Assembly (NCBI GenBank): GCA_003265685.1 | Contig: KZ836126.1 | Span: 1 to 37,384 of the forward strand | Reading direction: 5' to 3' | Length of the DNA: 37,384 nt | Source: Piscinibacter caeni | GTDB taxonomy: Bacteria > Pseudomonadota > Gammaproteobacteria > Burkholderiales > Burkholderiaceae_C | Shown: in pieces, positions 19,301 through 35,315 of the stretch | How the letters are laid out: each line of letters begins with the position of its first letter | Position numbering within the stretch: the stretch's first letter is position 1 | Notes under the pieces: model-generated | What the model saw: the letters and a program-made list of their open reading frames with translations, nothing else | Told to the model about the DNA's origin: nothing | Databases searched by the model: none | Translations under genes and position numbers: made by a program

Positions 19301-20053
19301 TTAGTAAGTTGCCCGCCCGCCCGAGAGGTCGAACACCGCGCCGGTGGAGAACGAGCAGTCGTCCGAGGCCAGCCAGGCGATCAGCGCCGCGGCCTCGTGC
19401 ACCTGCAGGAAGCGGCCCATCGGGATCTTCGACAGCATGAACGCGATGTGCTGTTCCGACATCTGGTCGAAGATCGCCGTCTTCGCGGCGGCCGGCGTGA
19501 CCGCGTTGACCAGCACGCCGCGCGTGGCCGTCTCCTTGGCGAGCGACTTGGTCAGCGCGATCAGCCCGGCCTTGCTCGCGCTGTAGTGCGAGGCGTTCGG
19601 GTTGCCTTCCTTGCCGGCGATCGACGCGATGTTGACGATGCGGCCCCAGCCGCGCTGCAGCATGTGCGGCACCACCGAGCGGCAGGTCAGATAGGGCGCG
19701 ACGAGGTTCACCTCGAGCACCCGGCGCCACACCTCGGGCGCCAGCTCCCAGGTGGTGCCGTTGCCGCCGGTGATGCCGGCGTTGTTGACCAGGATGTCGA
19801 TGCGCCCGTGCGCGCGCAGCGCCGCACCGGTGGCGGCCTCGACGGCGAGCTCGTCGGTCAGCTCGACGGTGTGCGCGTCCACCGTGCCGAGCGCCGCGAG
19901 CGCCTCGCGCGCCTGCTGCAGCAGCGGCGCATCGACGTCCCACAGCACGACGCTGGCCCCCGAGAGCAGCATGCGCTCGGCCACCGCGTAGCCGATGCCC
20001 TGCGCGCCGCCGGTGACGACGGCGACGCGACCGTTCAGGTCGATCTGGTTCAC
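19301..20053 (-). CDS. Short-chain dehydrogenase/reductase of the sugar-acid locus
   Basis: A 250-residue classical SDR. The cofactor loop is TGGAQGIG (14-21) and D39 at the end of strand 2 (LWDVD) suggests NAD(H) preference. NNAG lies at 90-93, and the catalytic residues are S144, Y157 and K161 (YSASK). The C-terminal region reads TPAAAKTAIFDQM and ends in FDLSGGRATY. Such SDRs in sugar-acid operons oxidise hydroxyls of 2-keto-3-deoxy acids or related polyols; the exact substrate is not readable and general 3-oxoacyl-ACP reductase names would be misleading. The start is GTG 20053, which overlaps the denD stop (GTGA). It is the last gene of a four-gene leftward operon with gntR, otnI and denD. 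It ends 3 nt from the metalloprotease stop. Confidence 0.85.
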   Translation of the reverse strand: MNQIDLNGRVAVVTGGAQGIGYAVAERMLLSGASVVLWDVDAPLLQQAREALAALGTVDAHTVELTDELAVEAATGAALRAHGRIDILVNNAGITGGNGTTWELAPEVWRRVLEVNLVAPYLTCRSVVPHMLQRGWGRIVNIASIAGKEGNPNASHYSASKAGLIALTKSLAKETATRGVLVNAVTPAAAKTAIFDQMSEQHIAFMLSKIPMGRFLQVHEAAALIAWLASDDCSFSTGAVFDLSGGRATY

Positions 20054-21051
20054 TTCAGTCCTGCCAGCGCGGCGGTGTTGCCGGCCCGCTCGCAGTCGGC
20101 GATGTACTGCCGCACGATGTCGGCGAAGCTCTCGTCGGGCTTCAGCCCGAGGGCGGCGGCGCGCTGCGCGCTGGCGCCCTGGGGCCAGTTGGCCACGATG
20201 CCGGCGATGCGCTCGTCGCGCTCGAAGCGCACGCGGGCACGCACCGCGGTGCCGGCCACCTGCTCGAGCGCCTCGAGCATCTCGCCCACGCGCACGTTCA
20301 GCGCCGGCAGGTTCAGCGCGGTGCGGCCGCCGTAGGCCTCGCGGCTGGCCTCGTAGACGGCGATCAGCGCGTCGACCGTGCGCGCCGGCGACGCGACCGG
20401 GTGCGAGACATCGGCCGGGACCGGGCAGATCGCCGTCTCGCCGGCGAGCGGCTCGCGGATGATGCCGCTGAAGAAGGACGAGGCCGCGCCGTTCGGCCGC
20501 CCCGGGCGCACGGTGACGGTCATCAGCCGCGCGCTGCGGCCGTCGAGATAGCCCTTGCGCGTGTAGTCGGCGACCAGGTGCTCGCAGATCAGCTTGTGCG
20601 TGCCGTAGCTGGTCTGCGGCGCCGGCAGCGTGGTGTCGGTGACGATGGCCGGCAGCGGCACCGCTGGATCCGGCCCGAACACCGCCACCGAGCTGCTGAA
20701 CACGAAACGCGGAACCTGGCCGGCACGGCGGAAGCCGTCGAGCAGCGCACGTGTCGAGTCGAGGTTGGAACGCAGGCCGAGCTCGAAGTCGAGCTCGCAT
20801 TCGCCGGAGACGGCCGAGGCGAGGTGGAACACGCCGCCGAAGCCCTCGCCGCCCAGGCCCGCGGCCTGCTCGAGCAGCGCCCCGGTGCGCGCCTCGACGC
20901 GCGGGTCGGCCAGCAGGTCCGCCGGCGGCGCGAACTGGTCGGCCAGCACCAAGCGCTCGAGCGGGCGCCCGGCCAGCGTGCCGCGCGCGAGCAGCGTGCG
21001 CGCCAGGCGCGCGCCGACGAAACCGGCGCCGCCGGTGATCAGGAGCTTCAT
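20050..21051 (-). CDS. denD: D-erythronate dehydrogenase-like extended SDR
   Basis: A 333-residue extended SDR starting [17 protein letters not shown], with the glycine motif at 7-13. It has [26 protein letters not shown], the catalytic pair Y149 and K153 in TSYGTHK, and [20 protein letters not shown]. The length and the SAVSGECE and [14 protein letters not shown] signatures match DenD, which oxidises D-erythronate to 2-oxo-D-erythronate with NAD+. The next gene upstream is an OtnI-type isomerase, as in described erythronate clusters, which supports the call. The ATG overlaps the otnI stop by 4 nt and its own stop overlaps the SDR start by 4 nt. The pathway's kinase and aldolase are not nearby, so the true substrate could be a different aldonate. 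Confidence 0.82.
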
Positions 21052-21848
21052 GGGGTCTGACGTCGGTAGGGTTGGAACCAGCCGAGCCCGGCCGAGGTGC
21101 CGGCCCGCGGCCGGTACTCGGCGCCGATGTGGCCGGCGTAGCCGAGTTCGTCGATCAGCGCGAACAGGTAGGAGTAGTTCACTTCGCCGCGGTCGGGCTC
21201 GTGGCGTTCGGGCACGCCGGCGATCTGCAGGTGGCCGACGCGGCCCTTGCCGAGTGGGTTCTGCAGGTAGTGCCGCAGCTTCATCGCCAGGTCGCCCTCG
21301 ACGATCTGGCAGTGGTACAGGTCCATCTGCACCTTCAGGTTGGGCGCGCCGACCTCGGCCACCACCGCATGCGCCTCGTCCTGCCGGTTCAGGAAGAAGC
21401 CGGGGATGTCGCGGGTGTTGATCGGCTCGATCAGGAACTGCAGCGCCGGCGCCTGGGCCGCGGCCCAGGCGAGGCGCTCGACGTAGGTGGCGCGCAGCGC
21501 GGCGCGTTCCACGCCGGGCGGCGCGAGCCCGGCCATCACGTGCACGCGCGGGCAGCCGAGGGCCTGCGCGTACTCGACGGCGAGCGCGATGCCGCAGCGG
21601 AACTCGTCCTCGCGCCCGGGCAGGCAGGCCAGGCCGCGCTCGCCCTTCGCCCGATCGCCCGGCGGGGCGTTGAACAGCACCTGCTGCAGGCCGTGCGCGG
21701 CCAGCCGCGCGGCGATCTCGCCGGCCGGGTGCTCGTAGGGGAACAGGTACTCGACCGCGTCGAAGCCATCCGCCGCAGCGGCGGCGAAGCGCTCGAGGAA
21801 GCCGTGCTCGCCGTACATCATCGACAGGTTGGCGGCGAACCGCGGCAT
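21048..21848 (-). CDS. otnI: 2-oxo-tetronate isomerase / hydroxypyruvate isomerase family protein
   Basis: A 266-residue TIM-barrel protein of the Hyi/OtnI family: [20 protein letters not shown] at the start, [43 protein letters not shown] and [10 protein letters not shown]141, D176, Q208 and E244 occupy the places of the divalent-metal ligands of E. coli Hyi. OtnI interconverts 2-oxo- and 3-oxo-tetronates after DenD or LtnD; hydroxypyruvate isomerase activity is also possible. The ATG at 21848 overlaps the regulator's stop by one base (TGATG). A GTG three bases upstream is an equally plausible start and would give GTGA coupling. The position between gntR and denD favours a tetronate or related sugar-acid role. 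Confidence 0.8.
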
Positions 21849-22624
21849 CACCGCCTCCGCGCCTTGCGGGTGATCACCCCGCCCTCCTCGAGGCGGCGCT
21901 CGCCCTGCAGGATGTGCTCGGTGGCGTGGCGGCGCGCGGCGACGGCGTCGTGCACGGCGATCGCCTCGACGATCGCGCGGTGCTCGCGCCGCACCTGCTC
22001 CATGAAGTCGCGCCGGCGCGCCTCGTTGCCGCGCGTGATGCGCATGCCCTCGCGCAGGTACTGCTCGAGGAAGCCGAGCAGGCGGCTGAACTGCGGGTTG
22101 CCGGTGGCCTCGCCGATGGCGCGGTGGAAGGCCAGGTCCTCGGCCACGCCGTCGCGGCCCTCGGCCACGGCGCGGTCGATCGCGGCGAGCGCGCGCTTCA
22201 GGCCAGCCACCTGGGCGCGCGTGGCGCGCTGCGCGGCCAGCGCGGCGATCTCGCCCTCCAGCACGCGGCGCACCTCGACCACGTGCACCACGGCCTCGAC
22301 CGACTCGAGCACGGACGGGTCGAAGGCGAGCGGCTGGTTCTCGTCGGGCTCGACGACGAACACCCCCGAGCCCTGGCGCGACTGCAGCATGCCGCGCGAC
22401 TTGAGCTGGTGCACCGCCTCGCGCACCACGGTGCGCGAGACGCCGTGCGCGGCGGCGAGCTGGGCCTCGGTGGGCAGCCGGTCGCCCGGGCGCAGCGCCC
22501 CGCCCTCGACCTGCGCGGCCAGCAGCGCGGCGAGCCGGTCCGACAGGCGCTCGGCCACCAGCCGCCCGGGCGGCGCGGCGGCCCGGCGCGGCGGCTGCGG
22601 GACGAGGCCGATTGACATGGTCAT
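21848..22624 (-). CDS. GntR-family regulator, FCD (FadR-type) subfamily
   Basis: A 258-residue regulator. The winged helix spans about 22-92 ([20 protein letters not shown], then [20 protein letters not shown] and QGSGVFVV). The FCD effector domain follows, with metal-binding [17 protein letters not shown] and later EHRAIVEAI and RRHATEHIL histidines. FCD regulators of sugar-acid operons are usually repressors released by a pathway intermediate. It is the first gene of the leftward operon and is divergent from the importer operon, with 67 bp between starts, so it probably controls both. Two in-frame ATGs, 22624 and 22618, are possible starts. There is no good Shine-Dalgarno before either, and a -10-like TATGAT lies so close that the mRNA may be leaderless. 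Confidence 0.87.
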
Positions 22625-22626
22625 CA

Positions 22627-22640
22627 GGTTATCATACAAG
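22627..22640. promoter_or_regulatory. Candidate GntR operator / promoter in the divergent region
   Basis: The AT-rich GGTTATCATACAAG stands out in GC-rich surroundings and lies between the two divergent operons. Read on the minus strand it contains ACTTGTAT, which matches half of the Bacillus subtilis gnt operator ATACTTGTATACAAGTAT, and TATGAT (22636-22631), one mismatch from a -10 box, only 6 nt before the regulator's ATG at 22624. I found no -35 at normal spacing. Autoregulation and control of the importer operon are inferred. Confidence 0.55.
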
Positions 22641-22691
22641 TTTGGCTCTCCACAACGGCTTTCGCGGGCAAGCGAATCAGGGCAACGTCGT

Positions 22692-23768
<1,077 letters not shown>

Positions 23769-23811
23769 CCCCCCACACGCTCCCCACACGCCCACGACAG
23801 GAGACAAGCCC

Positions 23812-25131
23812 ATGGACAACTTCAACCGCCGCCGCTTCCTCGAAGGCGCTGCCGCCACCACCGCGCTCGGCGCCGGCACGATCTGGGCGCCTGCCGTGCA
23901 CGCGCAGTCCGCCCCCGCCTACAAGCCCGAGGCGGGCGCCAAGCTGCGCGTGCTGCGCTGGAGCCGCTTCGTGCAGGGCGACATCGACCAGTACATGAAG
24001 AACGTCGCCGCGTTCACCGCCAAGACCGGCGTCGAGGTGCGGGTCGACAACGAGGGCTGGGAGGACGTGCGGCCCAAGGCCGCGGTGGCCGCCAACACCG
24101 GCGCCGGGCCCGACATCATCCTGTCGACCAACGACGACGCCAACCTCTACCCCGAGAAGCTGCTCGACGTCACCGACCTGTGCGAGTACCTGGGCCGCAA
24201 GTACGGCGGCTGGTATCCGGCCTGCGAGGCCTACCTGCGCCCGGACGGCAAGAACTGGATCGGCGTGGCGCTGGGCGCGGCCGGTGCGATGCTGGTGTAC
24301 CGCCAGAGCCACGTGAAGGCGGCCGGCTTCGACACCTTCCCGAAGGACACCGCCGGCTTCCTGAAGCTGCTTCAGGGCCTGAAGGCCAAGGGCACGCCGG
24401 CCGGCATGGCGCTGGGCAACGCCACCGGCGACGGGCTGTGGTGCAACTGGCTGATCTGGTCGCACGGCGCCATGCTGGTCGACAAGGACAACAAGGTCGT
24501 GATCGACAGCCCCGAGACGCTCAAGGCGCTCGAGTACGCCAAGGAGATGTACGCCACCTTCGTGCCCGGCACGCTCTCGTGGCTCGACCCGAACAACAAC
24601 AAGGCCTTCCTCGACGGCCAGGTGAGCCTCACGAACAACGGCATCTCGATCTACTACGCCGCCAAGAATTCGAAGGACGAGAAGATCGCGGCGATGAAGG
24701 AGGACATCCACCACGCCAACTACCCCATCGGGCCGGTGGGGGTGCCGACGGAGTCGCACCTGTTCTTCAACCAGATGATCATGAAGTACACCAAGTACCC
24801 GCAGGCGGCCAAGGAGTTCCTGCGCTTCATGATGGAGCAGGAGCAGTTCGACCCCTGGCTGCAGGCGGCCGGCGGCTACATCGCCCACCCGCTGGATGCC
24901 TACTCCAAGAGCGCGGTCTGGACGGTGGACCCGAAGCACACGCCCTACCGCGACTGCGTGAAGAACATGCGGCCGGCCGGTTATGCCGGCAAGCTCGGCT
25001 ACGCCTCCGCCGGCGCCGGCGCGGACTTCATCGTCGTCAACATGGTGGCCGAGGCGGCGAGCGGCTCGAAGACGCCGAAGGAAGCGGCCGAACGCGCCCA
25101 GAAGCGCGCCGAGCGCTACTACAAGGTCTGA
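23812..25131 (+). CDS. Extracellular solute-binding protein of the MalFGK/Ugp-type importer (Tat signal)
   Basis: A 439-residue periplasmic binding protein behind CAGGAGACAAGCCC. The start NRRRFLEGAAATTALGAG is a twin-arginine (Tat) signal, with cleavage probably after VHAQS. The mature part follows the family 1 (maltose/glycerol-phosphate) binding fold: LRVLRWSRFVQGDIDQYMKN, NTGAGPDIILSTNDDANLYP, LYRQ-like AGAMLVYRQSHVKAAGFDTF, then GLWCNWLIWSHGAM and GPVGVPTESHLFF. The ligand is presumably a sugar, polyol or sugar acid catabolised by the neighbouring enzymes. It is separated from its permeases by a 104-bp repeat-like region able to form hairpins. Tat export suggests folding before export, as for many such proteins in Burkholderiales. 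Confidence 0.9.
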   Translation: MDNFNRRRFLEGAAATTALGAGTIWAPAVHAQSAPAYKPEAGAKLRVLRWSRFVQGDIDQYMKNVAAFTAKTGVEVRVDNEGWEDVRPKAAVAANTGAGPDIILSTNDDANLYPEKLLDVTDLCEYLGRKYGGWYPACEAYLRPDGKNWIGVALGAAGAMLVYRQSHVKAAGFDTFPKDTAGFLKLLQGLKAKGTPAGMALGNATGDGLWCNWLIWSHGAMLVDKDNKVVIDSPETLKALEYAKEMYATFVPGTLSWLDPNNNKAFLDGQVSLTNNGISIYYAAKNSKDEKIAAMKEDIHHANYPIGPVGVPTESHLFFNQMIMKYTKYPQAAKEFLRFMMEQEQFDPWLQAAGGYIAHPLDAYSKSAVWTVDPKHTPYRDCVKNMRPAGYAGKLGYASAGAGADFIVVNMVAEAASGSKTPKEAAERAQKRAERYYKV

Positions 25132-25235
25132 GCTTGGCCCCCCCCCGAAGCGCCTTCGGCGCTCCCCCCCGGGGGGGCGCCGCCAGCGGACCGGCAAAGC
25201 CGGATCCGCGGCGACCGCTTGGAAGCTTCTGATCG
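25132..25235. repeat. Intergenic C/G-tract repeat with stem-loops between binding protein and permease genes
   Basis: This region contains three strong inverted repeats. AGCGCC-TTC-GGCGCT lies at 25149-25163. Seven C's facing seven G's occupy 25164-25177, extended by GGCG/CGCC at 25158-25161 and 25178-25181. CGGACCGGC-AAA-GCCGG-A-TCCG lies at 25187-25208, with one bulged A. This arrangement resembles a family of dispersed intergenic repeats I associate with Comamonadaceae and relatives; that identification is from memory and needs a genome search. Position after the binding-protein gene parallels the REP elements between malE and malF in E. coli, where hairpins stabilise the upstream mRNA. 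Confidence 0.65.
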
Positions 25236-26141
25236 ATGTCCCTTCTGTCGCGCCTCCAGAACAGCCGCAACGCGCTCGGCCTGGTGTTCATGCTGCCGGC
25301 CGCGGTGCTGTTGCTGCTGTTCCTCACCTACCCGCTCGGCCTGGGTACCTGGCTCGGTTTCACCGATGCCAAGGTGGGCCGCGGCGGGCAGTGGATCGGG
25401 CTGGAGAACTTCGCCTTCCTGGTGGGCGACTCGGTCACGCAGCTGGCGCTGTTCAACACGCTGTTCTACACGGTGGTGGCGAGCCTGCTGAAGTTCGGCC
25501 TCGGCCTCTGGCTCGCGCTGCTGCTGAACAAGAACCTGCCGTTCAAGAGCTTCTTCCGCGCCATCGTGCTGCTGCCGTGGATCGTGCCGACCGCGCTGTC
25601 GGCCATCGCCTTCTGGTGGATCTACGACGCGCAGTTCTCGGTGATCAGCTGGGTGCTCGTGAAGCTCGGCCTGATCGACCGCTACATCGACTTCCTCGGC
25701 GACCCGTGGAACGCGCGGCTGTCGACCATCGCCGCCAACGTGTGGCGCGGCGTGCCGTTCGTGGCCATCTCGCTGCTGGCCGGGCTGCAGACCATCTCGC
25801 CCTCGTACTACGAGGCCTCGGCGATCGACGGCGCCACGCCCTGGCAGCAGTTCCGCCACGTCACGCTGCCGCTGCTCTCGCCGATCATCGCGGTGGTGAT
25901 GACCTTCTCGGTGCTGTTCACCTTCACCGACTTCCAGCTCATCTACGTGCTGACGCGCGGCGGCCCGCTGAACGCCACCCACCTGATGGCCACGCTGGCG
26001 TTCCAGCGCGCGGTGCCCGGCGGCGCGCTCGGCGAGGGCGCGGCGCTGGCCACGCTGATGGTGCCGTTCCTGCTGGCGGCCATCATGTTCAGCTACTTCG
26101 GCCTGCAGCGGCGGGCCTGGCAGCAAGGCGGTGACAAGTGA
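25236..26141 (+). CDS. Sugar ABC importer permease, MalF/UgpA type
   Basis: A 301-residue inner-membrane protein with six hydrophobic segments, beginning LGLVFMLPAAVLLLLFLTYP. The EAA loop that contacts the ATPase reads EASAIDGATPWQQFRHVTLP near 200. It pairs with the permease encoded immediately downstream and with the ATPase at 22692. The ATG at 25236 lacks a strong Shine-Dalgarno but follows GGAAGCTTCTGATCG. The stop overlaps the start of the next gene (GTGA). The hairpin-rich gap before it probably lowers permease expression relative to the binding protein. Confidence 0.9.
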   Translation: MSLLSRLQNSRNALGLVFMLPAAVLLLLFLTYPLGLGTWLGFTDAKVGRGGQWIGLENFAFLVGDSVTQLALFNTLFYTVVASLLKFGLGLWLALLLNKNLPFKSFFRAIVLLPWIVPTALSAIAFWWIYDAQFSVISWVLVKLGLIDRYIDFLGDPWNARLSTIAANVWRGVPFVAISLLAGLQTISPSYYEASAIDGATPWQQFRHVTLPLLSPIIAVVMTFSVLFTFTDFQLIYVLTRGGPLNATHLMATLAFQRAVPGGALGEGAALATLMVPFLLAAIMFSYFGLQRRAWQQGGDK

Positions 26142-27010: not shown

Positions 27011-27014
27011 CCCG

Positions 27015-27953
27015 ATGAGCGACACGCGCGCGACGATCGGTTTCGCCGGCCTAGGCCTGATGGGCCGCGGCATGGCGAGGAACATCCTGGCCAAGGGCTG
27101 GCCGCTGGTGGTGCTCGCGCACCGCCGGCGCGAGGCGGTCGAGCAACTCAAGGCGCAGGGGGCACGCGAGGCCGGCACGGCGCGCGAGCTGGCGCAGGCC
27201 TGCGACATCGTGCACCTGTGCGTGACCGGCTCGCCGCAGGTCGAGGCCCTGGTGCGCGGGCCCGACGGCCTGCTGGCCGGGGCCGATCCCGCCAAACGCG
27301 CGGGCCTCGTGATCATCGACTGCTCCAGCTCCAACCCGGTGTCCACGCTGGCGCTGGCCGCCGAGGCGGCCGAACGCGGCGTGCACTTCGTCGACGCGCC
27401 GCTGTCGCGCACCCCCAAGGAGGCCGAGGCCGGCACGCTGGACACCATGGTCGGCGCCGCGCCCGAGGTGTTCGCGCGCATCGAGCCGGTGCTGCGCTGC
27501 TGGGCCGGCCTGGTGGTGCACCTCGGCCCGGTGGGCCTGGGCCACAAGATGAAGCTGATCAACAACTTCGTCGCGATGGGCTATGCCGCGCTGTTCGCCG
27601 AGGCGCTGGCGATCGCGCGCAAGGCCGGGCTGTCGATCGCGCAGTTCCATTCGGTGATCGGCTCGGGCCGCATGCGCAGCCCGTTCTACGACACCTTCAT
27701 GCAATGGTCGCTGGCGGGCGACGAGAACGCGCACCGCTTCACGATCAGCAACGCACACAAGGACATGCGCTACCTGGCCGCCATGGCCAACGAGCTGGGC
27801 GTGGTGAACACGCTGCAGGCGCAGGTGAAGAACAGCTTCGCCGCGATGGAGGCGGCCGGCCAGGGCGAGCGCTTCGTGCCGATGCTGGCCGACTTCGTCG
27901 CCGCGCTCAACGCCCTGCCGCCGGCGGCCCAGGAACCGAGGAGTCCCGCATGA
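27015..27953 (+). CDS. Beta-hydroxyacid dehydrogenase (3-hydroxyisobutyrate/L-threonate dehydrogenase family)
   Basis: A 312-residue NAD(P)-dependent enzyme. The Rossmann motif is IGFAGLGLMGRGMARNI (GxGxMG at 12-17). The catalytic region is GLGHKMKLINNF with lysine K180 and N184. The substrate motif, normally DAPVSGG-x-x-GAxxGTL, is here DAPLSRTPKEAEAGTL (127-142), so the Gly-Gly is lost. Family members oxidise beta-hydroxy acids such as 3-hydroxyisobutyrate, tartronate, D-glycerate or L-threonate (LtnD). With DenD and OtnI homologues in the same locus, an LtnD-like role is tempting, but the changed motif argues for a distinct substrate. It is translated from an AAGGAGTGACCCG site, and its stop overlaps the dehydratase start (ATGA). 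Confidence 0.83.
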   Translation: MSDTRATIGFAGLGLMGRGMARNILAKGWPLVVLAHRRREAVEQLKAQGAREAGTARELAQACDIVHLCVTGSPQVEALVRGPDGLLAGADPAKRAGLVIIDCSSSNPVSTLALAAEAAERGVHFVDAPLSRTPKEAEAGTLDTMVGAAPEVFARIEPVLRCWAGLVVHLGPVGLGHKMKLINNFVAMGYAALFAEALAIARKAGLSIAQFHSVIGSGRMRSPFYDTFMQWSLAGDENAHRFTISNAHKDMRYLAAMANELGVVNTLQAQVKNSFAAMEAAGQGERFVPMLADFVAALNALPPAAQEPRSPA

Positions 27954-29683
27954 GCAGCAGGAAGAAGGCACCGGGCGAACTGCGCAGCCAGCAGTGGTTC
28001 GGCCGCCAGGACCGCGACGGGTTCAACTACCGCAGCTGGGTCAAGGGCAAGGGCGTGCCGCACGACCAGTTCGACGGCCGCCCGGTGATCGGCATCTGCA
28101 ACACCTTCAGCGAGCTGACGCCCTGCAACTCGCATTTCCGCACGCTGGCCGAGCAGGTGAAGATCGGCGTCTACGAGGCGGGCGGCTTCCCGCTCGAGTT
28201 CCCGGTCATGTCGCTCGGCGAGACGCTGCTGCGGCCCACCGCGATGCTCTACCGCAACCTCGCCAGCATGGATGTGGAGGAGAGCCTGCGCGGCAACCCG
28301 GTCGACGGCGCGGTGCTGCTGATGGGCTGCGACAAGACCACGCCCAGCCTGATCATGGGCGCGGCCAGCGTCGACCTGCCGACCATCGGCGTCTCCGGCG
28401 GCCCGATGCTCAACGGCCGCTGGCGCGACCAGCAGCTCGGCTCGGGCACCGGCGTGTGGAGCATGAGCGAGCAGGTGCGTGCCGGCACGCTGAAGCTGCA
28501 GGACTTCTTCGAGGCCGAGAGCTGCATGCACCGCAGTCACGGCCACTGCATGACCATGGGCACCGCCTCGACCATGGCCTCGATGGTGGAGGCGCTCGGC
28601 GTGGGCCTGCCCGGCAACGCCGCCTACCCGGCGGTGGACGGGCGGCGCAACGTGCTGGCGCGCGAGGCAGGCCGGCGCATCGTGCAGATGGTGCACGAGG
28701 ACCAGAAGCTCTCCTCCATCCTCACCCGCGAGGCCTTCGAGAACGCCATCCGCACGCTCGCCGCGATCGGCGGCTCGACCAACGCGGTGATCCACCTGAT
28801 CGCGATCGCGCGGCGCGTCGGCGTGCCGCTCGCGATCGACGATTTCGACCGGCTCGGCAGCGAGCTGCCCTGCCTCGTCAACCTGCAGCCCTCGGGCCAG
28901 TTCCTGATGGAGGACTTCTGCTACGCCGGCGGGCTGCCGGCGGTTATGAAGGAGATCCTGCCGCTGCTGCACGCCGGCCACGTCACCGCCAGCGGCAGGA
29001 CGGTGGCCGAGAACGTGGCCTCGGCGCAGAACTGGAACCCGGACGTCATCAAGACACGCGCCGAGCCGTTCAAGGACAAGGCCGGCATCGCCGTGCTGCG
29101 CGGCAACCTCGCGCCGCGCGGCGCGGTGATCAAGCCCAGCGCCGCCACGCCCGCGCTGATGACGCACACCGGCCGCGCGGTGGTGTTCGAGACCATCGAG
29201 GACTTCCACGCCCGCATCGACGACGAGAACCTCGACGTCGACGAGACCTGCGTGCTGGTGCTGAAGAACTGCGGCCCCAAGGGCTACCCCGGCATGGCCG
29301 AGGTCGGCAACATGCCGCTGCCGCCCAAGGTGCTGCGCAAGGGCATCACGGACATGGTGCGCATCAGCGATGCGCGCATGAGCGGCACGGCCTACGGCAC
29401 CGTGGTGCTGCACACCGCGCCCGAAGCCGCGGCCGGCGGCCCGCTCGCGCTGGTGAACAACGGCGACCTGATCACGCTGGACGTGAAGGCGCGCCGCCTG
29501 CACCTGCACGTGGACGACGCCGAACTCGAGCGCCGCCGCGCCGCCTGGACACCGCCCGCCCCGCCGCTGCCCAGCGGCTACTGGAAGCTCTACGTGGACC
29601 ACGTGCTGCAGGCCGACGAGGGCGCCGACCTCGACTTCCTGGTCGGCCGCCGCGGCGACTTCGTTCCCCGCGACAACCACTGA
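27950..29683 (+). CDS. IlvD/EDD-family sugar-acid dehydratase, L-arabinonate dehydratase-like
   Basis: A 577-residue [2Fe-2S] dehydratase. Cluster ligands fall at C59 (SELTPCNSH), C127 (MGCDKTTPS) and C200 (SHGHCMTMG), the same numbering as described for Rhizobium leguminosarum L-arabinonate dehydratase. The catalytic serine is S478 in DARMSGTAYGTV. EDFCYAGGLPAVM and NCGPKGYPGMAEVGNM are typical of the sugar-acid branch rather than of biosynthetic IlvD. The expected reaction is removal of water from a C5 or C6 aldonate to the 2-keto-3-deoxy acid, with Mg2+ and the iron-sulfur cluster, in the cytoplasm. Substrate (L-arabinonate, D-xylonate, D-fuconate or other) cannot be fixed from sequence. 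The ATG overlaps the dehydrogenase stop by 4 nt. Confidence 0.88.
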   Translation: MSSRKKAPGELRSQQWFGRQDRDGFNYRSWVKGKGVPHDQFDGRPVIGICNTFSELTPCNSHFRTLAEQVKIGVYEAGGFPLEFPVMSLGETLLRPTAMLYRNLASMDVEESLRGNPVDGAVLLMGCDKTTPSLIMGAASVDLPTIGVSGGPMLNGRWRDQQLGSGTGVWSMSEQVRAGTLKLQDFFEAESCMHRSHGHCMTMGTASTMASMVEALGVGLPGNAAYPAVDGRRNVLAREAGRRIVQMVHEDQKLSSILTREAFENAIRTLAAIGGSTNAVIHLIAIARRVGVPLAIDDFDRLGSELPCLVNLQPSGQFLMEDFCYAGGLPAVMKEILPLLHAGHVTASGRTVAENVASAQNWNPDVIKTRAEPFKDKAGIAVLRGNLAPRGAVIKPSAATPALMTHTGRAVVFETIEDFHARIDDENLDVDETCVLVLKNCGPKGYPGMAEVGNMPLPPKVLRKGITDMVRISDARMSGTAYGTVVLHTAPEAAAGGPLALVNNGDLITLDVKARRLHLHVDDAELERRRAAWTPPAPPLPSGYWKLYVDHVLQADEGADLDFLVGRRGDFVPRDNH

Positions 29684-29702
29684 CAACCTGTGAATCCGGC
29701 CC

Positions 29703-29728
29703 AGGCGTCGGGGCCCTCATCGACGCCT
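29703..29728 (+). promoter_or_regulatory. Stem-loop between dehydratase and second binding-protein genes
   Basis: A perfect 8-bp inverted repeat, AGGCGTCG at 29703-29710 and CGACGCCT at 29721-29728, encloses a 10-nt loop in the 65-bp gap. No U tract follows, so it is more likely an mRNA-processing or partial-termination element than a full terminator. The ribosome binding site AGAGGAGA of the next gene follows about 9 nt downstream. Confidence 0.5.
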
Positions 29729-29748
29729 CAGATCCAGAGGAGACCCGC

Positions 29749-30867
29749 ATGCTGTTCCGTACGCCCATCGCCGCCGCCGTCGCGCTGGCGGCTGTTTCCC
29801 TCGCGCAGGCCGCACCGCCCAAGGTCGTCACGGCGCCGAATTCGGACCCGCAGTGCTTCGCGCCCTGGTCGGCCGGCACAAAGCTGTTCCAGTACCCGGC
29901 CAAGAAGGGCCCGTACCGGGTGGCGCTGGCCAACGGCTACATCGCCAACACCTGGCGCATCCAGATGATCAAGACGGCCAAGGCCTATGCGGCGCAGCCG
30001 GAGGTGGCCGCCAAGCTGAAGGAGTTCAAGGTCGTCTCGACCGGGGAAGACGTCGCCGCGCAGATCGCGGCGGTCAACAACTTCATCGACTCGGGCTACG
30101 ACGCGATCGTCGTCAACGCCCAGAACCCGGCTGCCTTCAAGCCGGTGATCAAGCGCGCCAACGACGCCGGCGTGGTGCTGGTGGCCTACGACAACATCCT
30201 CGACACCGAGGAGGCCATCAACGTCAACGTCGACCAGAAGGGGCTGGGCATGTACTGGGCCGAGTGGCTCGTCAAGCACGTCCCCAACGGCGGCAAGGTG
30301 CTGGAGGTGCGCGGCGTCTCGGGCACCTCGGTCGACCGCGACCGCCACGACGGCATCCACGAGGTGCTCAAGAAGTCCGGCAAGAAGTGGGACGTGGTCG
30401 AGGTGATCGGCAAGTGGGACGACCCGACCGCGCAGAAGGTCGCCGCCGACGCGATCGCGGTGCACAAGAAGTTCGACGCGATCACCGCGCAGGGCGGCGA
30501 CACCGGCGTGGTGCAGGCGATGATCGACGCCAAGCACCCCTTCGTTCCGTTCGGCGGCGAGACGGAGAACGGCTTCCGGAAGTTCTGCGCCAAGTACTCG
30601 GGCCAGGGCCTGAAGTGCGCCTCGGCCGGCACCGGGCCGGCCCAGGTGGCGGTGGCGATGAAGGTCGCGCTGGCGGCGCTCGAGGGCAAGGTGCTGCCGC
30701 AGTCGATCAAGCTGCCGCTGGCCAAGGCCGAGGACCCGAACATGAAGGACGGGCAGGACTTCTACGAGAAGCAGTCCGACAACTTCTTCGTCGGCAACTC
30801 CTTCCCGACCTGCGGCATCAACTTCTCGGCGCAGGAGATCATGGGCCAGACCGAGGCCAACAAGTAA
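29749..30867 (+). CDS. Periplasmic sugar-binding protein of an RbsABC-type importer
   Basis: A 372-residue protein behind CAGAGGAGACCCGC. The signal peptide is FRTPIAAAVALAAVSLAQAA. The mature part shows the periplasmic-binding-protein type 1 (ribose/xylose) fold: YRVALANGYIANTWRIQMIK, AQIAAVNNFIDSGYDAIVVN, VVLVAYDNILD, DRDRHDGIHEVLKKSGKKWD and AITAQGGDTGVVQAMIDA. Four cysteines in the mature protein are more than usual for the family. It delivers substrate to the two permeases and the dual ATPase that follow. The ligand is unknown; a pentose, polyol or tetrose fits the neighbouring enzymes. It has its own ribosome binding site and lies behind a small hairpin, so it may be expressed above the flanking genes. 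Confidence 0.9.
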   Translation: MLFRTPIAAAVALAAVSLAQAAPPKVVTAPNSDPQCFAPWSAGTKLFQYPAKKGPYRVALANGYIANTWRIQMIKTAKAYAAQPEVAAKLKEFKVVSTGEDVAAQIAAVNNFIDSGYDAIVVNAQNPAAFKPVIKRANDAGVVLVAYDNILDTEEAINVNVDQKGLGMYWAEWLVKHVPNGGKVLEVRGVSGTSVDRDRHDGIHEVLKKSGKKWDVVEVIGKWDDPTAQKVAADAIAVHKKFDAITAQGGDTGVVQAMIDAKHPFVPFGGETENGFRKFCAKYSGQGLKCASAGTGPAQVAVAMKVALAALEGKVLPQSIKLPLAKAEDPNMKDGQDFYEKQSDNFFVGNSFPTCGINFSAQEIMGQTEANK

Positions 30868-30893
30868 CCCGCCGGCGCCACCGGGGAGCGGCC

Positions 30894-32444
30894 ATGGCAC
30901 TGCTCGAAATGCAGGGCATCTCCAAGCGCTACGGCGGGGTGCGGGCGCTGCAGGAGGCGAACCTCGTGATCGAGGCCGGGCGCATCCACGCGGTGCTGGG
31001 CGAGAACGGCGCGGGCAAGTCGACCCTGATCAAGATCATGGCCGGCGTGGTCGCGCCCGACGAGGGGCGCATGCTGCTGGACGGGCAGCCCGTGTCCTTC
31101 GCCTCGCCGGCCGCGGCCAACGCGGCCGGCATCGTCTGCATCTTCCAGGAGCTGTCGCTGATCCCCGACCTCCCGGTGGCCGACAACATCCTGATCAGCA
31201 ACCCGCCGCGCCGCTTCGGGCTGATCGACCGGCGCGCGCAGCGCCGCCTGGCCGAGGAGGCACTGGCGCGCGCCGGCGCGCCGGACATCCACCCGCTCGC
31301 GCTGGTGAAGGACCTGCCGCTGTCGCGCCGCCAGATGGTCGAGATCGCCAAGGCGCTGGCGCGCCGGCCGCGCATCCTGATCCTCGACGAGGCGACCTCG
31401 GCGCTGACGGCCGCCGACGTGACCCGGATCTACGCCGTGCTCAAGCGGCTGCGCGCCGAGGGCCTGGCGCTGATCTACATCTCGCACCGCATGCACGAGA
31501 TCGCCGAGCTGGCCGACGAGTGCACGGTGTTCTGCAACGGCCGCAGCGTGGCGAGCTACGCCGCCGGCACCAAGAGCGACCAGGAGGTCGTCGAGCTGAT
31601 GATCGGGCGCGAGTACAGCGGCCAGTTCCCCGCCCGCGGCGCGCGCCCGGCACCCGGCGCCGTGCCGCGCCTGGAGCTGCGCCACCTCCAATGGGGCGAG
31701 CGGCTGCGCGACATCTCGCTGCGCCTGCACGCCGGCGAGGTGATCGGCCTGGGCGGGCTCGACGGCCAGGGCCAGCGCGAGCTGCTGCTGGCGCTGTTCG
31801 GCGTGCTGCGCGGCACCAGCGGCGAGCTGCTGATCGACGGCCGGCCGGTCACCATCACCGGGCCGGACGTCGCCAAACGCGCCGACATCGGCATGGCGCT
31901 GATCCCCGAGGACCGCAAGACCGAGGGCCTGATGCTGCCGATGTCGGTGCGCGACAACCTGTCGTTCGCCGCGCTCGGGCGGCTGTCGCGGGCCGGCATC
32001 GTCGACCGCGCCGCCGAGCGTGCGGCCGTCGAGCAGGTGATGCGCGCGCTGGCGGTGCGCAGCGACGGAACCGATCCGGCCGCCGGCTCGCTCTCGGGCG
32101 GCAACCAGCAGAAGCTGGTGATCGGCAAGTGGCTGCTGATGGCGCCGCGCATCATCCTGCTGAACGACCCGACGCGCGGCATCGACGTCGGCACCAAGCA
32201 GGAGATCTACCAGCTGCTGCACCGCCTGGCCGAGGAGGGCGCGGCCATCCTCTTCTACTCGACCGACTACGACGAGCTGATCGGCTGCTGCGACCGCGTG
32301 CTGGTGATGGTCGAGGGCGCGATCGGGAGCGAGCTGGTGGGCACCGAGATCACCGAGCGGGCGCTGATCGCCAGCGCGCTGAACCTCGGCAACGGCGCGG
32401 GCGCCGACGCCCCGGCCCGACACACCGCCGAGGAGCCGGCATGA
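30894..32444 (+). CDS. Sugar ABC importer dual ATPase (RbsA/AraG/XylG type)
   Basis: A 516-residue protein with two nucleotide-binding domains. The first has Walker A GENGAGKST (36-44), the degenerate signature LPLSRRQMVEIAKAL and Walker B ILILDEATSAL. The second starts near 255, has the family's degenerate Walker A (GGLDGQGQREL), signature SLSGGNQQKLVIGKWL and Walker B IILLNDPTRGIDVG. PEDRKTEGLM is typical of the family. This asymmetry is normal for RbsA-type enzymes. It energises import with the permeases at 32441 and 33417 and the binding protein at 29749. The start follows a GGGGAG site; the stop overlaps the next start (ATGA). Confidence 0.92.
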   Translation: MALLEMQGISKRYGGVRALQEANLVIEAGRIHAVLGENGAGKSTLIKIMAGVVAPDEGRMLLDGQPVSFASPAAANAAGIVCIFQELSLIPDLPVADNILISNPPRRFGLIDRRAQRRLAEEALARAGAPDIHPLALVKDLPLSRRQMVEIAKALARRPRILILDEATSALTAADVTRIYAVLKRLRAEGLALIYISHRMHEIAELADECTVFCNGRSVASYAAGTKSDQEVVELMIGREYSGQFPARGARPAPGAVPRLELRHLQWGERLRDISLRLHAGEVIGLGGLDGQGQRELLLALFGVLRGTSGELLIDGRPVTITGPDVAKRADIGMALIPEDRKTEGLMLPMSVRDNLSFAALGRLSRAGIVDRAAERAAVEQVMRALAVRSDGTDPAAGSLSGGNQQKLVIGKWLLMAPRIILLNDPTRGIDVGTKQEIYQLLHRLAEEGAAILFYSTDYDELIGCCDRVLVMVEGAIGSELVGTEITERALIASALNLGNGAGADAPARHTAEEPA

Positions 32445-33424
32445 ACGCGGACTGGGGCTGGCGGCTGCGCGAGCACCGCGGCACGCTGCTGGCCTTCGCG
32501 GCCTTCGTCGTGATGTTCACCATCTACGCCGCCAACCACCCGGCCGGGCTGAACGCCTACGTCGCGACCACGGCGGCCAACAAGGGCGTGCTGCTGGCGA
32601 TCGTCGCGATGGCGCAGACCCTGGTGGTGCTGACCTCGGGCATCGACCTGTCGGTCGGCATGGTGCTGGTGCTGTCTAACTGCCTGGCCTCGACGATCGT
32701 GGTCGGCTCGCCGCTGTCGGTCGCGCTCGGCGTGGCCGGCGTGCTGGCCACGGGCGCGCTGTGCGGCGCGCTGAACGCGGTGATCGTGATCTTCGGGCGC
32801 CTGCAGCCGATCGTCACCACCATCGCCACCGGCGCGATCTTCTTCGGCGCCGCGCTGGCGCTGCGCCGCGTGCCGGGCGGCGATGTCGACCCGACGCTGG
32901 CCGACGCGCTGACCGGCCAGCTGCCCGGCGGCGTGCCGGCCAGCCTGGCGTTGCTGCTCGCTCTGGTGCTGCTGGTCTGGCTGCCGTTCCGGTTGTCGGT
33001 GACCGGGCGCGCCGCCTACGCGGTCGGCTCCTCGGAGGTGGCGGCCTTCATGTCGGGCGTGCCGATCCGGCGCGCCAAGTTCGCCGCCTACACGCTGTCC
33101 GGGCTGCTGGCCGCGGTGGGCGGGCTGTTCGTCACCTGCATCACCTACTCCGGCGAGGCCTCGGCGGCCAACGGCAGCACCTACACGCTGTACTCGATCG
33201 CCGCCGTCGTGCTGGGCGGCGTGTCGCTGTTCGGTGGCTCGGGCAGCGCGGTGGGCGCGATCTTCGGCGCGCTGATGTTCCGCACCATCGGCGACCTGCT
33301 GTTCGTCTTCAACCTCGAGCCGCTGTGGCAGCCGCTGTTCCAGGGCGTGGTGCTGGCGGCGGCGGTGTGCCTCGGCGCGCTGCGCCTGCTGCACGTGCGC
33401 AACCGGTTGGACTTGTATGGCTGA
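32441..33424 (+). CDS. Sugar ABC importer permease 1, RbsC type
   Basis: A 327-residue inner-membrane protein with about 8-10 hydrophobic segments. Family marks are VVLTSGIDLSVGMVLVLSNC, FGRLQPIVTTIATGAIF, YAVGSSEVAAFMSGVPIRRA and AAVVLGGVSLFGGSGSAVGA. Start ATG 32441 overlaps the ATPase stop. It overlaps the next permease gene by 8 nt (33417-33424). It probably forms a heterodimeric channel with that protein, since both are adjacent, of the same family and clearly different in sequence. Confidence 0.92.
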   Translation: MNADWGWRLREHRGTLLAFAAFVVMFTIYAANHPAGLNAYVATTAANKGVLLAIVAMAQTLVVLTSGIDLSVGMVLVLSNCLASTIVVGSPLSVALGVAGVLATGALCGALNAVIVIFGRLQPIVTTIATGAIFFGAALALRRVPGGDVDPTLADALTGQLPGGVPASLALLLALVLLVWLPFRLSVTGRAAYAVGSSEVAAFMSGVPIRRAKFAAYTLSGLLAAVGGLFVTCITYSGEASAANGSTYTLYSIAAVVLGGVSLFGGSGSAVGAIFGALMFRTIGDLLFVFNLEPLWQPLFQGVVLAAAVCLGALRLLHVRNRLDLYG

Positions 33425-34376
33425 CGCGACCCTGCGCCCGCGCATCGACCCCGCGATCCTCGCCGCCTTCGGCTGCATCGTCGTGCTGCTGGGCGTCGGC
33501 AGCCTGTACTCGAGCAGCTTCCTGTCGCCCGAGTACCTGCTGCAGCAGCTCAAGGTGGCGTCCTTCCTGGGCGTCATCGCCACCGGCTCGATGATCGTCA
33601 TCCTGCTCGGCCAGATCGACCTGTCGGTGCCGTGGGTGGTGGCCGTCGGCGGCATGATGGCCACCGCCGCCACCGGCTGGGGGCCGGTCGGGCAGGCGCT
33701 GGCGATCCCGTTCGGCGTCGGCTGCGGCGTCGCGCTCGGCCTGGTCAACGGCGCGGGTGTCGCCTACCTGCGCCTGCCCTCGATGATCGTGACGCTGGCG
33801 GTCAACGCGATCGCGCAGGGCCTGATGGTGGTGCACACCGGCGGTTTCTCGCCGCAGGACGCGTCGTCGCCGGCGATGCGCTTCATCGCCACGGGCAACA
33901 GCCTGTGGAGCATCCCGAACGCGCTGCTGGTGTGGGCCGCGGTCGGCGCGGGCGCGGTGTTCCTGCTCAGCCGCACGACCTACGGCCGCGTGGTCTACGC
34001 GATCGGCAACCGCGAGCGCGCCGCCTACCTGTCGGGCGCACGCACCCGGCTCGTGGTGCTCGCCAGCTTCGCGCTGGCCGGCGGGCTGTCGGCGTTCGGC
34101 GGCGTGCTGCTGGCCGGTTATGCGAGCAAGGCGGCGCAGGCGATGGGCGACCCCTACCTGCTGCCCGCGATCGCGGCGGTCGTGCTCGGCGGCACCTCGA
34201 TCCTCGGCGGGCGCGGCAGCTACGTCGGCACGGTGGCCGGGGTCATCCTGATCACGCTGCTGCAGTCCATCCTGTCGGTGATGCAGATCGAGGAGTTCGG
34301 CCGCCACGTGATCTACGGCGTCGTGATCATCGCGATGCTGCTGGTCTACGGGCGCGGGCGGCGCCATACGGATTGA
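33417..34376 (+). CDS. Sugar ABC importer permease 2, RbsC type
   Basis: A 319-residue inner-membrane protein of the RbsC family: MIVILLGQIDLSVPWVVAVG, LRLPSMIVTLAVNAIAQGLM, YAIGNRERAAYLSGARTRLV and AAVVLGGTSILGGRGSYVGT. The ATG at 33417 lies 8 nt inside the upstream permease gene, so translation is probably coupled. Having two RbsC paralogues for one importer is seen in some proteobacterial sugar and autoinducer-2 systems. It ends 12 nt before the lactonase gene, which carries the last function of the rightward operon. Confidence 0.92.
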   Translation: MADATLRPRIDPAILAAFGCIVVLLGVGSLYSSSFLSPEYLLQQLKVASFLGVIATGSMIVILLGQIDLSVPWVVAVGGMMATAATGWGPVGQALAIPFGVGCGVALGLVNGAGVAYLRLPSMIVTLAVNAIAQGLMVVHTGGFSPQDASSPAMRFIATGNSLWSIPNALLVWAAVGAGAVFLLSRTTYGRVVYAIGNRERAAYLSGARTRLVVLASFALAGGLSAFGGVLLAGYASKAAQAMGDPYLLPAIAAVVLGGTSILGGRGSYVGTVAGVILITLLQSILSVMQIEEFGRHVIYGVVIIAMLLVYGRGRRHTD

Positions 34377-34388
34377 AGGGAGCGGGGC

Positions 34389-35315
34389 ATGGGCATCGGA
34401 CTGGGCGAGAGCTTCGAGGTGTGGGACCCGCGCTTCGAGAGGCTGGTCTTCGGCAACGTGCACGTCGAGAAGCTCTGGAGCGGCTGCCGCTGGGCCGAGG
34501 GGCCGGCCTGGTTCGCGGCCGGGCGCTACCTGGTGTGGAGCGACATCCCGAACGACCGCATGCTGCGCTGGGACGAGACCGACGGCTCGGTCTCGGTGTT
34601 CCGCCAGCCGGCCATGAACACCAACGGCCACACGGTCGACCTGCAGGGCCGGCTGGTGAGCTGCGAGCACCGCGGGCGCTGCGTCTCGCGCACCGAGCAC
34701 GACGGCACGCGCACCGTGCTCGTCGCGCAGTACGAAGGAAAGCGGCTCAATTCGCCCAACGACGTGGTGGTCAAGAGCGACGGCACGATCTGGTTCACCG
34801 ACCCGAGCTACGGCATCGACAGCGAGTACGAGGGCGACGCCGCGCCCAACGAGCAGGGCGCGCAACGTGTCTACCGCTTCGATCCGGCCGGCGGCGCGCT
34901 GACCGCCGTCGCGAGCGACTTCGTGCAACCCAACGGGCTGGCGTTCTCGCCCGACGAATCGCTGCTCTACATCGTCGACACCGGCGCCACGCACGTGGCG
35001 AACGGCCCGCACCACGTGCGCAGGTTCGGCGTGAACGCCGACGGCACGCTCTCCGGCGGCGAGGTGTTCGCCACCTGCGGCGCCGGGCTGTACGACGGCT
35101 TGCGCGTCGACGTGAAGGGCAACCTGTGGCTCTCGGCCGGTGACGGCGTGCACTGCCATGCGAGCGACGGCACGCTGCTGGGCAAGATCCGCATCCCCGA
35201 GACGGTGGCCAACGTCTGCTTCGGCGGGGCCAAGCTGAACCGGCTGTTCATCTGCGGCACGACCTCGCTGTATGCGGTCTACCTGAACACGCGCGGGGCC
35301 CGGCCCAAGGGCTGA
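34389..35315 (+). CDS. SMP-30/gluconolactonase-family sugar lactonase
   Basis: A 308-residue six-bladed beta-propeller enzyme behind AAGGGAGCGGGGC. The first metal ligand is E37 in CRWAEGPAWF. Further marks are NTNGHTVDLQGRLVSCEH, LNSPNDVVVKSDGTIWFTDP (metal-ligand Asn), FVQPNGLAFSPDESLLYIVD and AGLYDGLRVDVKGNLWLS (metal-ligand Asp). Such enzymes hydrolyse aldonolactones to aldonates with a divalent cation, which would supply the dehydratase at 27950. There is no signal peptide, so it is cytoplasmic. Substrate could be an arabinono-, xylono- or other lactone. It is the last gene of the rightward run, and its TGA is one base from the convergent FUSC stop. Confidence 0.88.
   Translation: MGIGLGESFEVWDPRFERLVFGNVHVEKLWSGCRWAEGPAWFAAGRYLVWSDIPNDRMLRWDETDGSVSVFRQPAMNTNGHTVDLQGRLVSCEHRGRCVSRTEHDGTRTVLVAQYEGKRLNSPNDVVVKSDGTIWFTDPSYGIDSEYEGDAAPNEQGAQRVYRFDPAGGALTAVASDFVQPNGLAFSPDESLLYIVDTGATHVANGPHHVRRFGVNADGTLSGGEVFATCGAGLYDGLRVDVKGNLWLSAGDGVHCHASDGTLLGKIRIPETVANVCFGGAKLNRLFICGTTSLYAVYLNTRGARPKG

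What the first reader, a model, noticed from the sequence alone, without database searches (positions are those of the whole stretch)
19301..35315. Mosaic sugar-acid catabolic locus lacking the expected kinase and aldolase
One GntR/FCD regulator sits between two divergent operons. These combine tetronate enzymes (DenD-like, OtnI-like), a beta-hydroxyacid dehydrogenase, an NAD-type SDR, an L-arabinonate-dehydratase-like [2Fe-2S] enzyme and an SMP-30 lactonase. Known erythronate/threonate pathways need OtnK (kinase) and OtnC (aldolase). Non-phosphorylative pentose pathways need a KDA aldolase, or a KDA dehydratase plus a semialdehyde dehydrogenase. None is here. The set may form a new route in which the C5/C6 branch feeds into a C4-acid branch, or the missing steps lie elsewhere.
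Basis: partly seen in the sequence, partly recalled or inferred. Interest (0 to 1): 0.72.

Follow-up and report, generated by a model that had tools for sequence, protein, structure and literature searches.

The report
Split four-carbon sugar-acid degradation locus
This is a mostly ordinary set of genes for eating four-carbon sugar acids, joined to a sugar-acid dehydratase and a second sugar importer; the two enzymes that seemed to be missing sit elsewhere in the same genome, and in some relatives they sit in the same run of genes.

Summary
The gene set is confirmed, with one addition: an ABC ATPase (22692-23768, +) heads the right-hand operon. "Lacking kinase and aldolase" holds only for this contig: the genome has ltnD-otnK-otnC on contig C48 (OtnK 639 bits, cut-off 350; OtnC 234, just under its cut-off of 250). 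In a single-contig genome of the same genus, DenD and OtnK are also far apart. In two Rubrivivax MAGs the same kinds of regulator and importer flank an unbroken run FCD-LtnD-OtnK-OtnC-OtnI-DenD-SDR, so the window's left operon is that run without LtnD-OtnK-OtnC. The OtnK tree shows the C48 kinase is another lineage, not the displaced copy. A putative 11-base operator is conserved between regulator and ATPase, but its exact form occurs once in the genome and not at C48, so co-regulation is not shown. The dehydratase's nearest solved relative prefers D-gluconate; in many relatives it sits among gluconate/idonate-type genes, and candidate downstream enzymes lie on other contigs. No new route is needed. 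A kinase-free route is not excluded: two MAGs carry a minimal set without a detected OtnK.

The parts
19301..20053 (-). SDR-family dehydrogenase, last gene of the left operon
   Evidence: Pfam PF13561/PF00106; found beside DenD in 19 of the 28 DenD-bearing loci among 80 and, cut off by the locus end, after DenD in L185 and L189
20050..21051 (-). DenD, D-erythronate dehydrogenase family
   Evidence: NCBIfam NF043036 360.2 bits, cut-off 325; tree
21048..21848 (-). OtnI, 2-oxo-tetronate isomerase family
   Evidence: NCBIfam NF043033 379.9 bits, cut-off 325; 72-75% identical to the OtnI next to OtnK-OtnC in G206, G220 and G221, 64-69% in G214 and G225
21848..22624 (-). GntR/FCD regulator (ATG start at 22624; a TTG start at 22639 is possible)
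   Evidence: PF07729 and PF00392; translation
22629..22639 (-). TTGTATGATAA, putative operator between the FCD gene and the divergent ABC operon
   Evidence: one match in the window with one mismatch allowed (0.05 expected); the exact pattern TTGTATGAYAA occurs once in the whole genome; conserved in relatives
22692..23768 (+).
   Evidence: NF008653 494.6 bits, cut-off 432
23812..25131 (+). CUT1-type ABC solute-binding protein
   Evidence: PF13416
25236..26141 (+). CUT1-type ABC permease A
   Evidence: PF00528
26138..27010 (+). CUT1-type ABC permease B
   Evidence: PF00528
27015..27953 (+). beta-hydroxyacid dehydrogenase (HIBADH/GlxR-like), substrate not resolved
   Evidence: PF03446 and PF14833; below all NCBIfam cut-offs
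27950..29683 (+). IlvD/EDD sugar-acid dehydratase with C-terminal His
   Evidence: closest solved chain 8ej0 (PuDHT), 982 bits
29749..30867 (+). CUT2-type sugar-binding protein
   Evidence: PF13407
30894..32444 (+). CUT2-type ABC ATPase
   Evidence: PF00005; AraG/XylG/RbsA-like, below the cut-off of those models
32441..33424 (+). CUT2-type permease A
   Evidence: PF02653
33417..34376 (+). CUT2-type permease B
   Evidence: PF02653
34389..35315 (+). SMP-30/gluconolactonase-family lactonase
   Evidence: PF08450 168 bits; nearest solved chains 3dr2 and 3e5z

Best explanation
The locus is a split tetronate (C4 sugar-acid) system joined to a sugar-acid dehydratase module. Left operon, FCD-OtnI-DenD-SDR: DenD oxidises D-erythronate at C2 and OtnI isomerises the 2-oxo-tetronate to 3-oxo-tetronate. 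The product is then phosphorylated by OtnK and decarboxylated to dihydroxyacetone phosphate by OtnC, both encoded with an L-threonate dehydrogenase (LtnD) on another contig, C48. The CUT1 ABC importer brings in the tetronate or a precursor, and the FCD protein represses the divergent promoter until its ligand arrives. The right-hand dehydratase (Dhdt) makes 2-keto-3-deoxy acids from (2R,3S) C5/C6 aldonates that arrive through the CUT2 importer and the lactonase; downstream enzymes from elsewhere in the genome (candidates on C56, C23, C69) finish the job. Shown here: gene content, presence and lineage of OtnK and OtnC, gene order in relatives, a conserved putative operator. Inferred: every substrate, all regulation, and the roles of the SDR and the HIBADH-like protein.
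For: DenD and OtnI pass equivalog cut-offs. The own genome has OtnK (639.2, cut-off 350) beside OtnC (233.9, cut-off 250) and LtnD (466.9, cut-off 350) on C48. G220 and G221 carry FCD-LtnD-OtnK-OtnC-OtnI-DenD-SDR divergent from MalK-SBP1-PermA1-PermB1. OtnK is over cut-off in 20 of 26 genomes that I chose from the 80 behind the loci and in the single-contig same-genus genome G091 at 0.85 Mb, with DenD at 4.06 Mb. Of the 30 best-scoring DenD loci returned for the family, 16 have at least one of LtnD, OtnK, OtnC, OtnI within about 1.5 kb. The window's DenD lies in a 34-row clade (100/100) that also holds the DenD of G220 and G221. The putative operator is also found upstream of ltnD in L152, L154 and L163. 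Dhdt is closest to PuDHT and ends in the His reported as fully conserved in sugar-acid dehydratases. C56 holds a 77% identical dehydratase with an AraD1-family protein (499.9, cut-off 340) and an aldehyde dehydrogenase; an SMP-30-like protein and a sugar importer beside it were recognised by eye from the translations and not searched.
Against: OtnC is slightly below its cut-off (233.9/250). The putative operator's exact form occurs once in the genome and C48 has none with up to 2 mismatches in the 20 kb scanned. 17 of the 21 OtnK loci scanned have none within one mismatch, among them the unlinked OtnK-OtnC pairs of G200-G203 and G091. The OtnK tree puts the C48 kinase outside the in-operon clade, so it was not simply moved. 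6 of 26 genomes had no OtnK match. 14 of the 30 DenD loci showed no Otn gene or LtnD in their short flanks. The SDR-linked DenD clade sits on a long branch (0.46), which leaves room for a changed substrate. The OtnI model also matches proteins 46-55% identical to the window's, several of them beside distant LtnD-like genes, so the score alone is weak. OtnI is absent from the locus in L103, L106 and L111.
Confidence: 0.66

Rival explanations
1. Kinase-free route: DenD, the SDR and the dehydratase act together on one sugar acid, or Dhdt dehydrates L-threonate to 4-hydroxy-2-oxobutanoate, so OtnK and OtnC are not needed.
For: L103 and L106 have SDR-DenD-FCD divergent from MalK-SBP1-PermA1-PermB1-Dhdt with the exact 11-base site, and no OtnK was found in their assemblies G204 and G205, about 4.0 Mb each. 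PuDHT dehydrates L-threonate at about 12% of its D-gluconate rate (PMC9314677, passages).
Against: The own genome and the six same-architecture relatives examined (G200-G203, G091, G193; G193 and G202 look like one assembly) have OtnK. G204 and G205 are MAGs whose completeness was not told. Sugar-acid dehydratases need (2R,3S) substrates (PMC9314677, passages); D-erythronate is (2R,3R) (recalled). The C-terminal His of PuDHT favours longer acids.
Confidence: 0.1
2. Pentose/hexose pathway: the SDR and/or DenD act as aldose or keto-deoxy-acid dehydrogenases, SMP-30 opens the lactone, Dhdt dehydrates, and C56-type enzymes finish; the tetronate names are misleading.
For: SDR passes the 'glucose 1-dehydrogenase' subfamily cut-off (216.8/215). 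Dhdt orthologues in many relatives sit with a gluconokinase (over cut-off) and with gluconate 5-dehydrogenase-like and L-idonate 5-dehydrogenase-like proteins (both below cut-off; one representative of each cluster scanned). The same kinds of protein serve Routes I-III (PMC6336799, passages).
Against: SDR and DenD sit in runs with LtnD, OtnK, OtnC and OtnI in G220 and G221; DenD and OtnI pass equivalog cut-offs.
Confidence: 0.17
3. Two pathways that merely share a regulator: tetronates on the left with the CUT1 importer, aldonates on the right with Dhdt, CUT2 and SMP-30, without metabolic linkage. This overlaps with the best explanation and differs only in denying any link.
For: In L075 and L096 (G220, G221) the tetronate genes and Dhdt are neighbours, but a second FCD regulator and other genes lie between them. 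The CUT2-SGL cassette is absent after Dhdt in L039.
Against: In the window PermB1, HIBADH and Dhdt overlap or lie within five bases of each other, so they are probably co-transcribed (coordinates).
Confidence: 0.4

Closest known systems
Bacterial D-erythronate/L-threonate pathway (LtnD/DenD, OtnI, OtnK, OtnC; Zhang et al. 2016 as told in PMC12540250 and PMC10580937, passages)
   Same: DenD and OtnI in the window; LtnD, OtnK and Aldolase_II-type OtnC in the same genome; relatives with all in one run of genes
   Different: Split over two contigs; CUT1 ABC importer, FCD regulator and an extra SDR; a dehydratase module joined to the importer operon
[quoted passage not shown]
   Same: Same enzyme families
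   Different: DeoR-family regulator VdtR and an mfs gene there; FCD regulator and two ABC importers here; no dehydratase mentioned in the passages seen
PuDHT, sugar-acid dehydratase of Paralcaligenes ureilyticus (PDB 8EJ0/8EPZ; PMC9314677 and PMC11316719, passages)
   Same: Closest solved chain (982 bits); C-terminal His; aligned over nearly the whole length
   Different: Native pathway of PuDHT not described in the passages seen; substrate of the window enzyme untested
Non-phosphorylative pentose Routes I-III (PMC6336799, abstract and passages)
   Same: Acid-sugar dehydratase, lactonase, SDR, sugar ABC importer
   Different: No DHDPS, FAH or HpcH family match on this contig; candidates elsewhere in the genome

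Membership tests
D-erythronate/L-threonate (Otn) pathway | C2 dehydrogenase (DenD or LtnD) | tested here: met
   DenD in window 360.2/325; LtnD on C48 466.9/350
D-erythronate/L-threonate (Otn) pathway | 2-oxo-tetronate isomerase OtnI | tested here: met
   379.9/325; the model also matches other proteins 46-55% identical to it in relatives
D-erythronate/L-threonate (Otn) pathway | 3-oxo-tetronate kinase OtnK in the genome | tested here: met
   C48, 639.2/350
D-erythronate/L-threonate (Otn) pathway | Aldolase_II-type decarboxylase OtnC in the genome | tested here: inconclusive
   next to OtnK on C48; best model is OtnC, but 233.9 is below the cut-off of 250
D-erythronate/L-threonate (Otn) pathway | All steps in one locus | tested here: not met
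   OtnK and OtnC on C48; no putative operator there
D-erythronate/L-threonate (Otn) pathway | Activity on tetronates | not testable with these tools
   needs enzyme assay or growth test
Sugar-acid dehydratase (SADHT) class of IlvD/EDD | Conserved C-terminal histidine | tested here: met
   protein ends ...FVPRDNH; feature from PMC11316719
L-arabinonate dehydratase (NF009559) | Score over curated cut-off | tested here: not met
   853.5 against 882
L-threonate dehydrogenase (NF043037), HIBADH-like gene at 27015-27953 | Score over curated cut-off | tested here: not met
   133.5 against 350
Non-phosphorylative Route II (Weimberg-type) | KDP dehydratase and KGSA dehydrogenase in the same locus | tested here: not met
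   no DHDPS or FAA_hydrolase match on C58; AraD1-family protein (over cut-off) and aldehyde dehydrogenase (498 against 770) on C56
Non-phosphorylative Route I (Dahms-type) | HpcH- or DHDPS-type aldolase in the same locus | tested here: not met
   none on C58; HpcH-family genes follow paralogous dehydratases on C23 and C69

The most novel reading that the evidence does not exclude
The minimal conserved unit FCD, SDR-DenD, CUT1 importer and Dhdt (as in L103 and L106, where no OtnK was found) runs a kinase-free degradation of a sugar acid: DenD and SDR oxidise or epimerise it and Dhdt dehydrates it. The Otn enzymes would then be a second outlet that only some genomes have linked to the same regulator.
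Probability: 0.1. Interest if true: 0.55.

Novelty: new variant of a known kind. Interest (0 to 1): 0.22.

Why it matters
It shows how an apparent pathway hole in one locus can be filled by an unlinked operon of another lineage, and how a tetronate module, a sugar-acid dehydratase and a swappable importer cassette are recombined in Burkholderiales. It names a concrete importer and a regulator site that make tetronate uptake testable, and an SDR partner of DenD whose job is open.

Tried and rejected
Rejected: 'kinase and aldolase are missing' from the genome. Rejected: 'the C48 block is the same block moved'; the OtnK tree separates the in-operon kinases of G220, G221 and G224 from the other 30 rows. 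Not supported: 'same regulon in this genome'; the exact pattern TTGTATGAYAA occurs once in it, and the 20 kb of C48 scanned has no site with up to 2 mismatches. Rejected: my own first impression that the CUT1 importer lacks an ATPase; I had not scanned that reading frame, and the gene is at 22692-23768.

Led nowhere or dropped: the FCD consensus TNGTNNNACNA (recalled) gave no match in the 13 regions scanned; the conserved variant was found. My gene caller, trained on this GC-rich window, missed genes in several loci, so the cluster counts are lower bounds; L103, L106, L111, L075 and L096 were re-called. In one search protein 3 (LtnD) and protein 9 were given in a wrong frame and returned nothing; LtnD was repeated correctly, the other was dropped. 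The OtnI family search (25 of 26 genomes over cut-off) does not separate OtnI from related isomerases. Rows dropped before the trees: one search took DenD of at least 40% identity and 90% length (67 loci), left out L182, L187, L188, L190 and one identical sequence, and added the window (63 rows; the partial DenD of G224 is not in it); one search left out L096, L173, L178, L211, L213, L217-L220 and L223 of 42 and added the C48 kinase (33 rows). Some rows are not independent: G193 and G202 show the same OtnK coordinates, and G091 and L053/G203 are almost identical. Literature searches for a described identical cluster: (listings, 20, 15 and 15 papers shown of 23, 28 and 33); no listed title or abstract start described one; subscription papers are mostly not held.
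Full report
Check of the observation. The window is bases 1-37384 of contig C58 (37645 bases) of a 6.87 Mb, 310-contig genome of 99.33% completeness and 2.81% contamination. One gene was missed: a UgpC/MalK-type ABC ATPase at 22692-23768, so the CUT1-type importer is complete. The left operon is FCD-OtnI-DenD-SDR. The right operon is MalK-SBP1-PermA1-PermB1-HIBADH-Dhdt, followed by a CUT2-type importer (SBP2-ATP2-PermA2-PermB2) and an SMP-30 lactonase. DenD and OtnI pass their NCBIfam equivalog cut-offs; the dehydratase is just below the L-arabinonate dehydratase cut-off and the HIBADH-like protein far below all. 'Operon' here is read from strand and spacing; no transcript data were available.

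The missing enzymes. Searches of the own genome found one SBD_N kinase and, next to it, one of three Aldolase_II proteins, both on C48. [quoted passage not shown] The gene upstream is an L-threonate dehydrogenase (466.9, cut-off 350). In a single-contig genome of the same genus, G091 (5.40 Mb), DenD is at 4.06 Mb and OtnK at 0.85 Mb, that is 3.2 Mb apart, or 2.2 Mb the other way round if it is circular. Its DenD locus has the window's order with an LtnD between FCD and OtnI (L215). Of 26 genomes that I chose out of those behind the 80 loci, 20 have OtnK over cut-off and 6 have no match (G204, G205, G209, G212, G217, G219).

Relatives show the unsplit run. One search found 446 relatives of the dehydratase and kept the best 80. 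Of these 80 loci, 28 also carry a DenD, and 19 of those 28 have the SDR beside it. In L075 and L096 (Rubrivivax MAGs, genomes G220 and G221) the regulator and the CUT1-type importer sit next to FCD-LtnD-OtnK-OtnC-OtnI-DenD-SDR on one strand (the SDR is cut off by the ends of the short loci). In G224 the order is FCD-OtnK-OtnC-DenD with a MalK homologue on the other side (L165). In L037, L039, L053 and G091, LtnD remains at the locus and OtnK-OtnC is elsewhere; in the window and in L035, LtnD is also gone from the locus and stands before OtnK-OtnC elsewhere. The OtnK tree groups the in-operon kinases of G220, G221 and G224 (100/100) apart from the other 30 rows, C48 included. The reading is therefore loss of the in-operon block and service by an unlinked OtnK-OtnC of another lineage, not a move. 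The DenD tree puts the window's DenD in a 34-row clade (100/100) that holds the DenD of G220 and G221, next to DenD of OtnC-OtnI-DenD clusters; the branch leading to it is long (0.46). A look at DenD that did not start from the dehydratase, though it took the 30 best-scoring of the listed loci, found at least one of LtnD, OtnK, OtnC, OtnI beside DenD in 16 and none in 14, with only about 1.5 kb of flank held; 81 of 200 family genomes have a DenD over cut-off.

Regulation. The sequence TTGTATGATAA lies between the FCD start and the ATPase gene. It matches once in the window (0.05 expected with one mismatch allowed), and the exact pattern TTGTATGAYAA matches once in the whole genome. Of 12 regulator-ATPase regions scanned in relatives, 8 have it exactly, 3 with one mismatch and 1 with two. 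These are homologous regions, two pairs of them from near-identical genomes, and part of the site could be coding if FCD starts at TTG 22639, so this alone is weak. Over the 80 loci (1.45 Mb), 10 carry it within one mismatch, against about 1 expected. In 21 OtnK loci (20 of the 30 plus L212; 87.8 kb), 4 carry it within one mismatch, against none in 30 Markov-model resamplings; by position three of these (L152, L154, L163) lie upstream of ltnD and one (L165) between FCD and MalK. The other 17 do not carry it, among them the unlinked OtnK-OtnC pairs of G200-G203 and G091. The C48 operon has no such site, so co-regulation in this genome is not shown.

The dehydratase. Its closest solved chain is 8ej0 (982 bits), which PMC11316719 identifies as the sugar-acid dehydratase of Paralcaligenes ureilyticus. 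That enzyme prefers D-gluconate, then D-xylonate, then L-threonate (about 12%), and of four C5 acids tested took only the (2R,3S) one (PMC9314677, passages). The window enzyme ends in the conserved histidine. In many of the 80 loci its orthologue sits with a second FCD regulator (cluster c3, 47 loci), a gluconate 5-dehydrogenase-like SDR (c1, 47), a gluconokinase (c14, 21) or an L-idonate 5-dehydrogenase-like protein (c18, 18); these are lower bounds and the names rest on one representative each, of which only the gluconokinase passes its cut-off. C5/C6 aldonates are therefore the likelier substrates, and D-erythronate, which is (2R,3R) (recalled), is unlikely. The own genome has a 77% identical dehydratase on C56 beside an AraD1-family protein (499.9, cut-off 340) and an aldehyde dehydrogenase whose best NCBIfam match is alpha-ketoglutaric semialdehyde dehydrogenase (498, below its cut-off of 770). 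Two further paralogues (52%) on C69 and C23 are each followed by an HpcH-family protein. Two PF01081 (KDPG-type) aldolases are on C31 and C95; the one on C31 follows the most distant paralogue (33%), probably an Edd-Eda pair.

Conclusion. The gene list is right and the local absence of kinase and aldolase is real, but the genome is not missing them, and relatives show where they belong. The tetronate reading of the left operon and the CUT1-type importer is the best supported. How the dehydratase, the HIBADH-like protein and the SDR take part is inferred. The most novel reading left open is a kinase-free use of the minimal set seen in L103 and L106; both are MAGs in which OtnK was not found.

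Noticed in passing
window 29749-34376: The CUT2-type importer genes exist as two alleles at the same site. Window and L035 are 94-99% identical in seven other locus proteins compared (OtnI, is 88%) but only 60-72% in SBP2/ATP2/PermA2/PermB2; the window's allele matches L037 and L061 (84-94%), L035's matches L053 (82-90%).
   Followed up: partly
L103 and L106: Minimal SDR-DenD-FCD / MalK-SBP1-PermA1-PermB1-Dhdt unit with the exact 11-base site in two MAGs without a detected OtnK.
   Followed up: partly
L036 and L082 (Aquincola MAGs): Dhdt is preceded by an LtnD-like and the HIBADH-like dehydrogenase, two further genes and an SDR; in L036 the two genes are the N- and C-halves of a transketolase, those of L082 were not searched. 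A different mosaic of the same module.
   Followed up: no
window 11838-14645 (+) and 14667-16781 (-): Two convergent genes for proteins with RTX calcium-binding nonapeptide repeats, the second with a weak match to a serralysin C-terminal domain.
   Followed up: no
window 579-2012 (+): Protein with an N-terminal TIR domain (PF13676, 43 bits); context not studied.
   Followed up: no
G000:C11:18820-19764: A second, distant DenD-like protein in the same genome (232 bits, below the 325 cut-off; 33% identical to the window's DenD).
   Followed up: no
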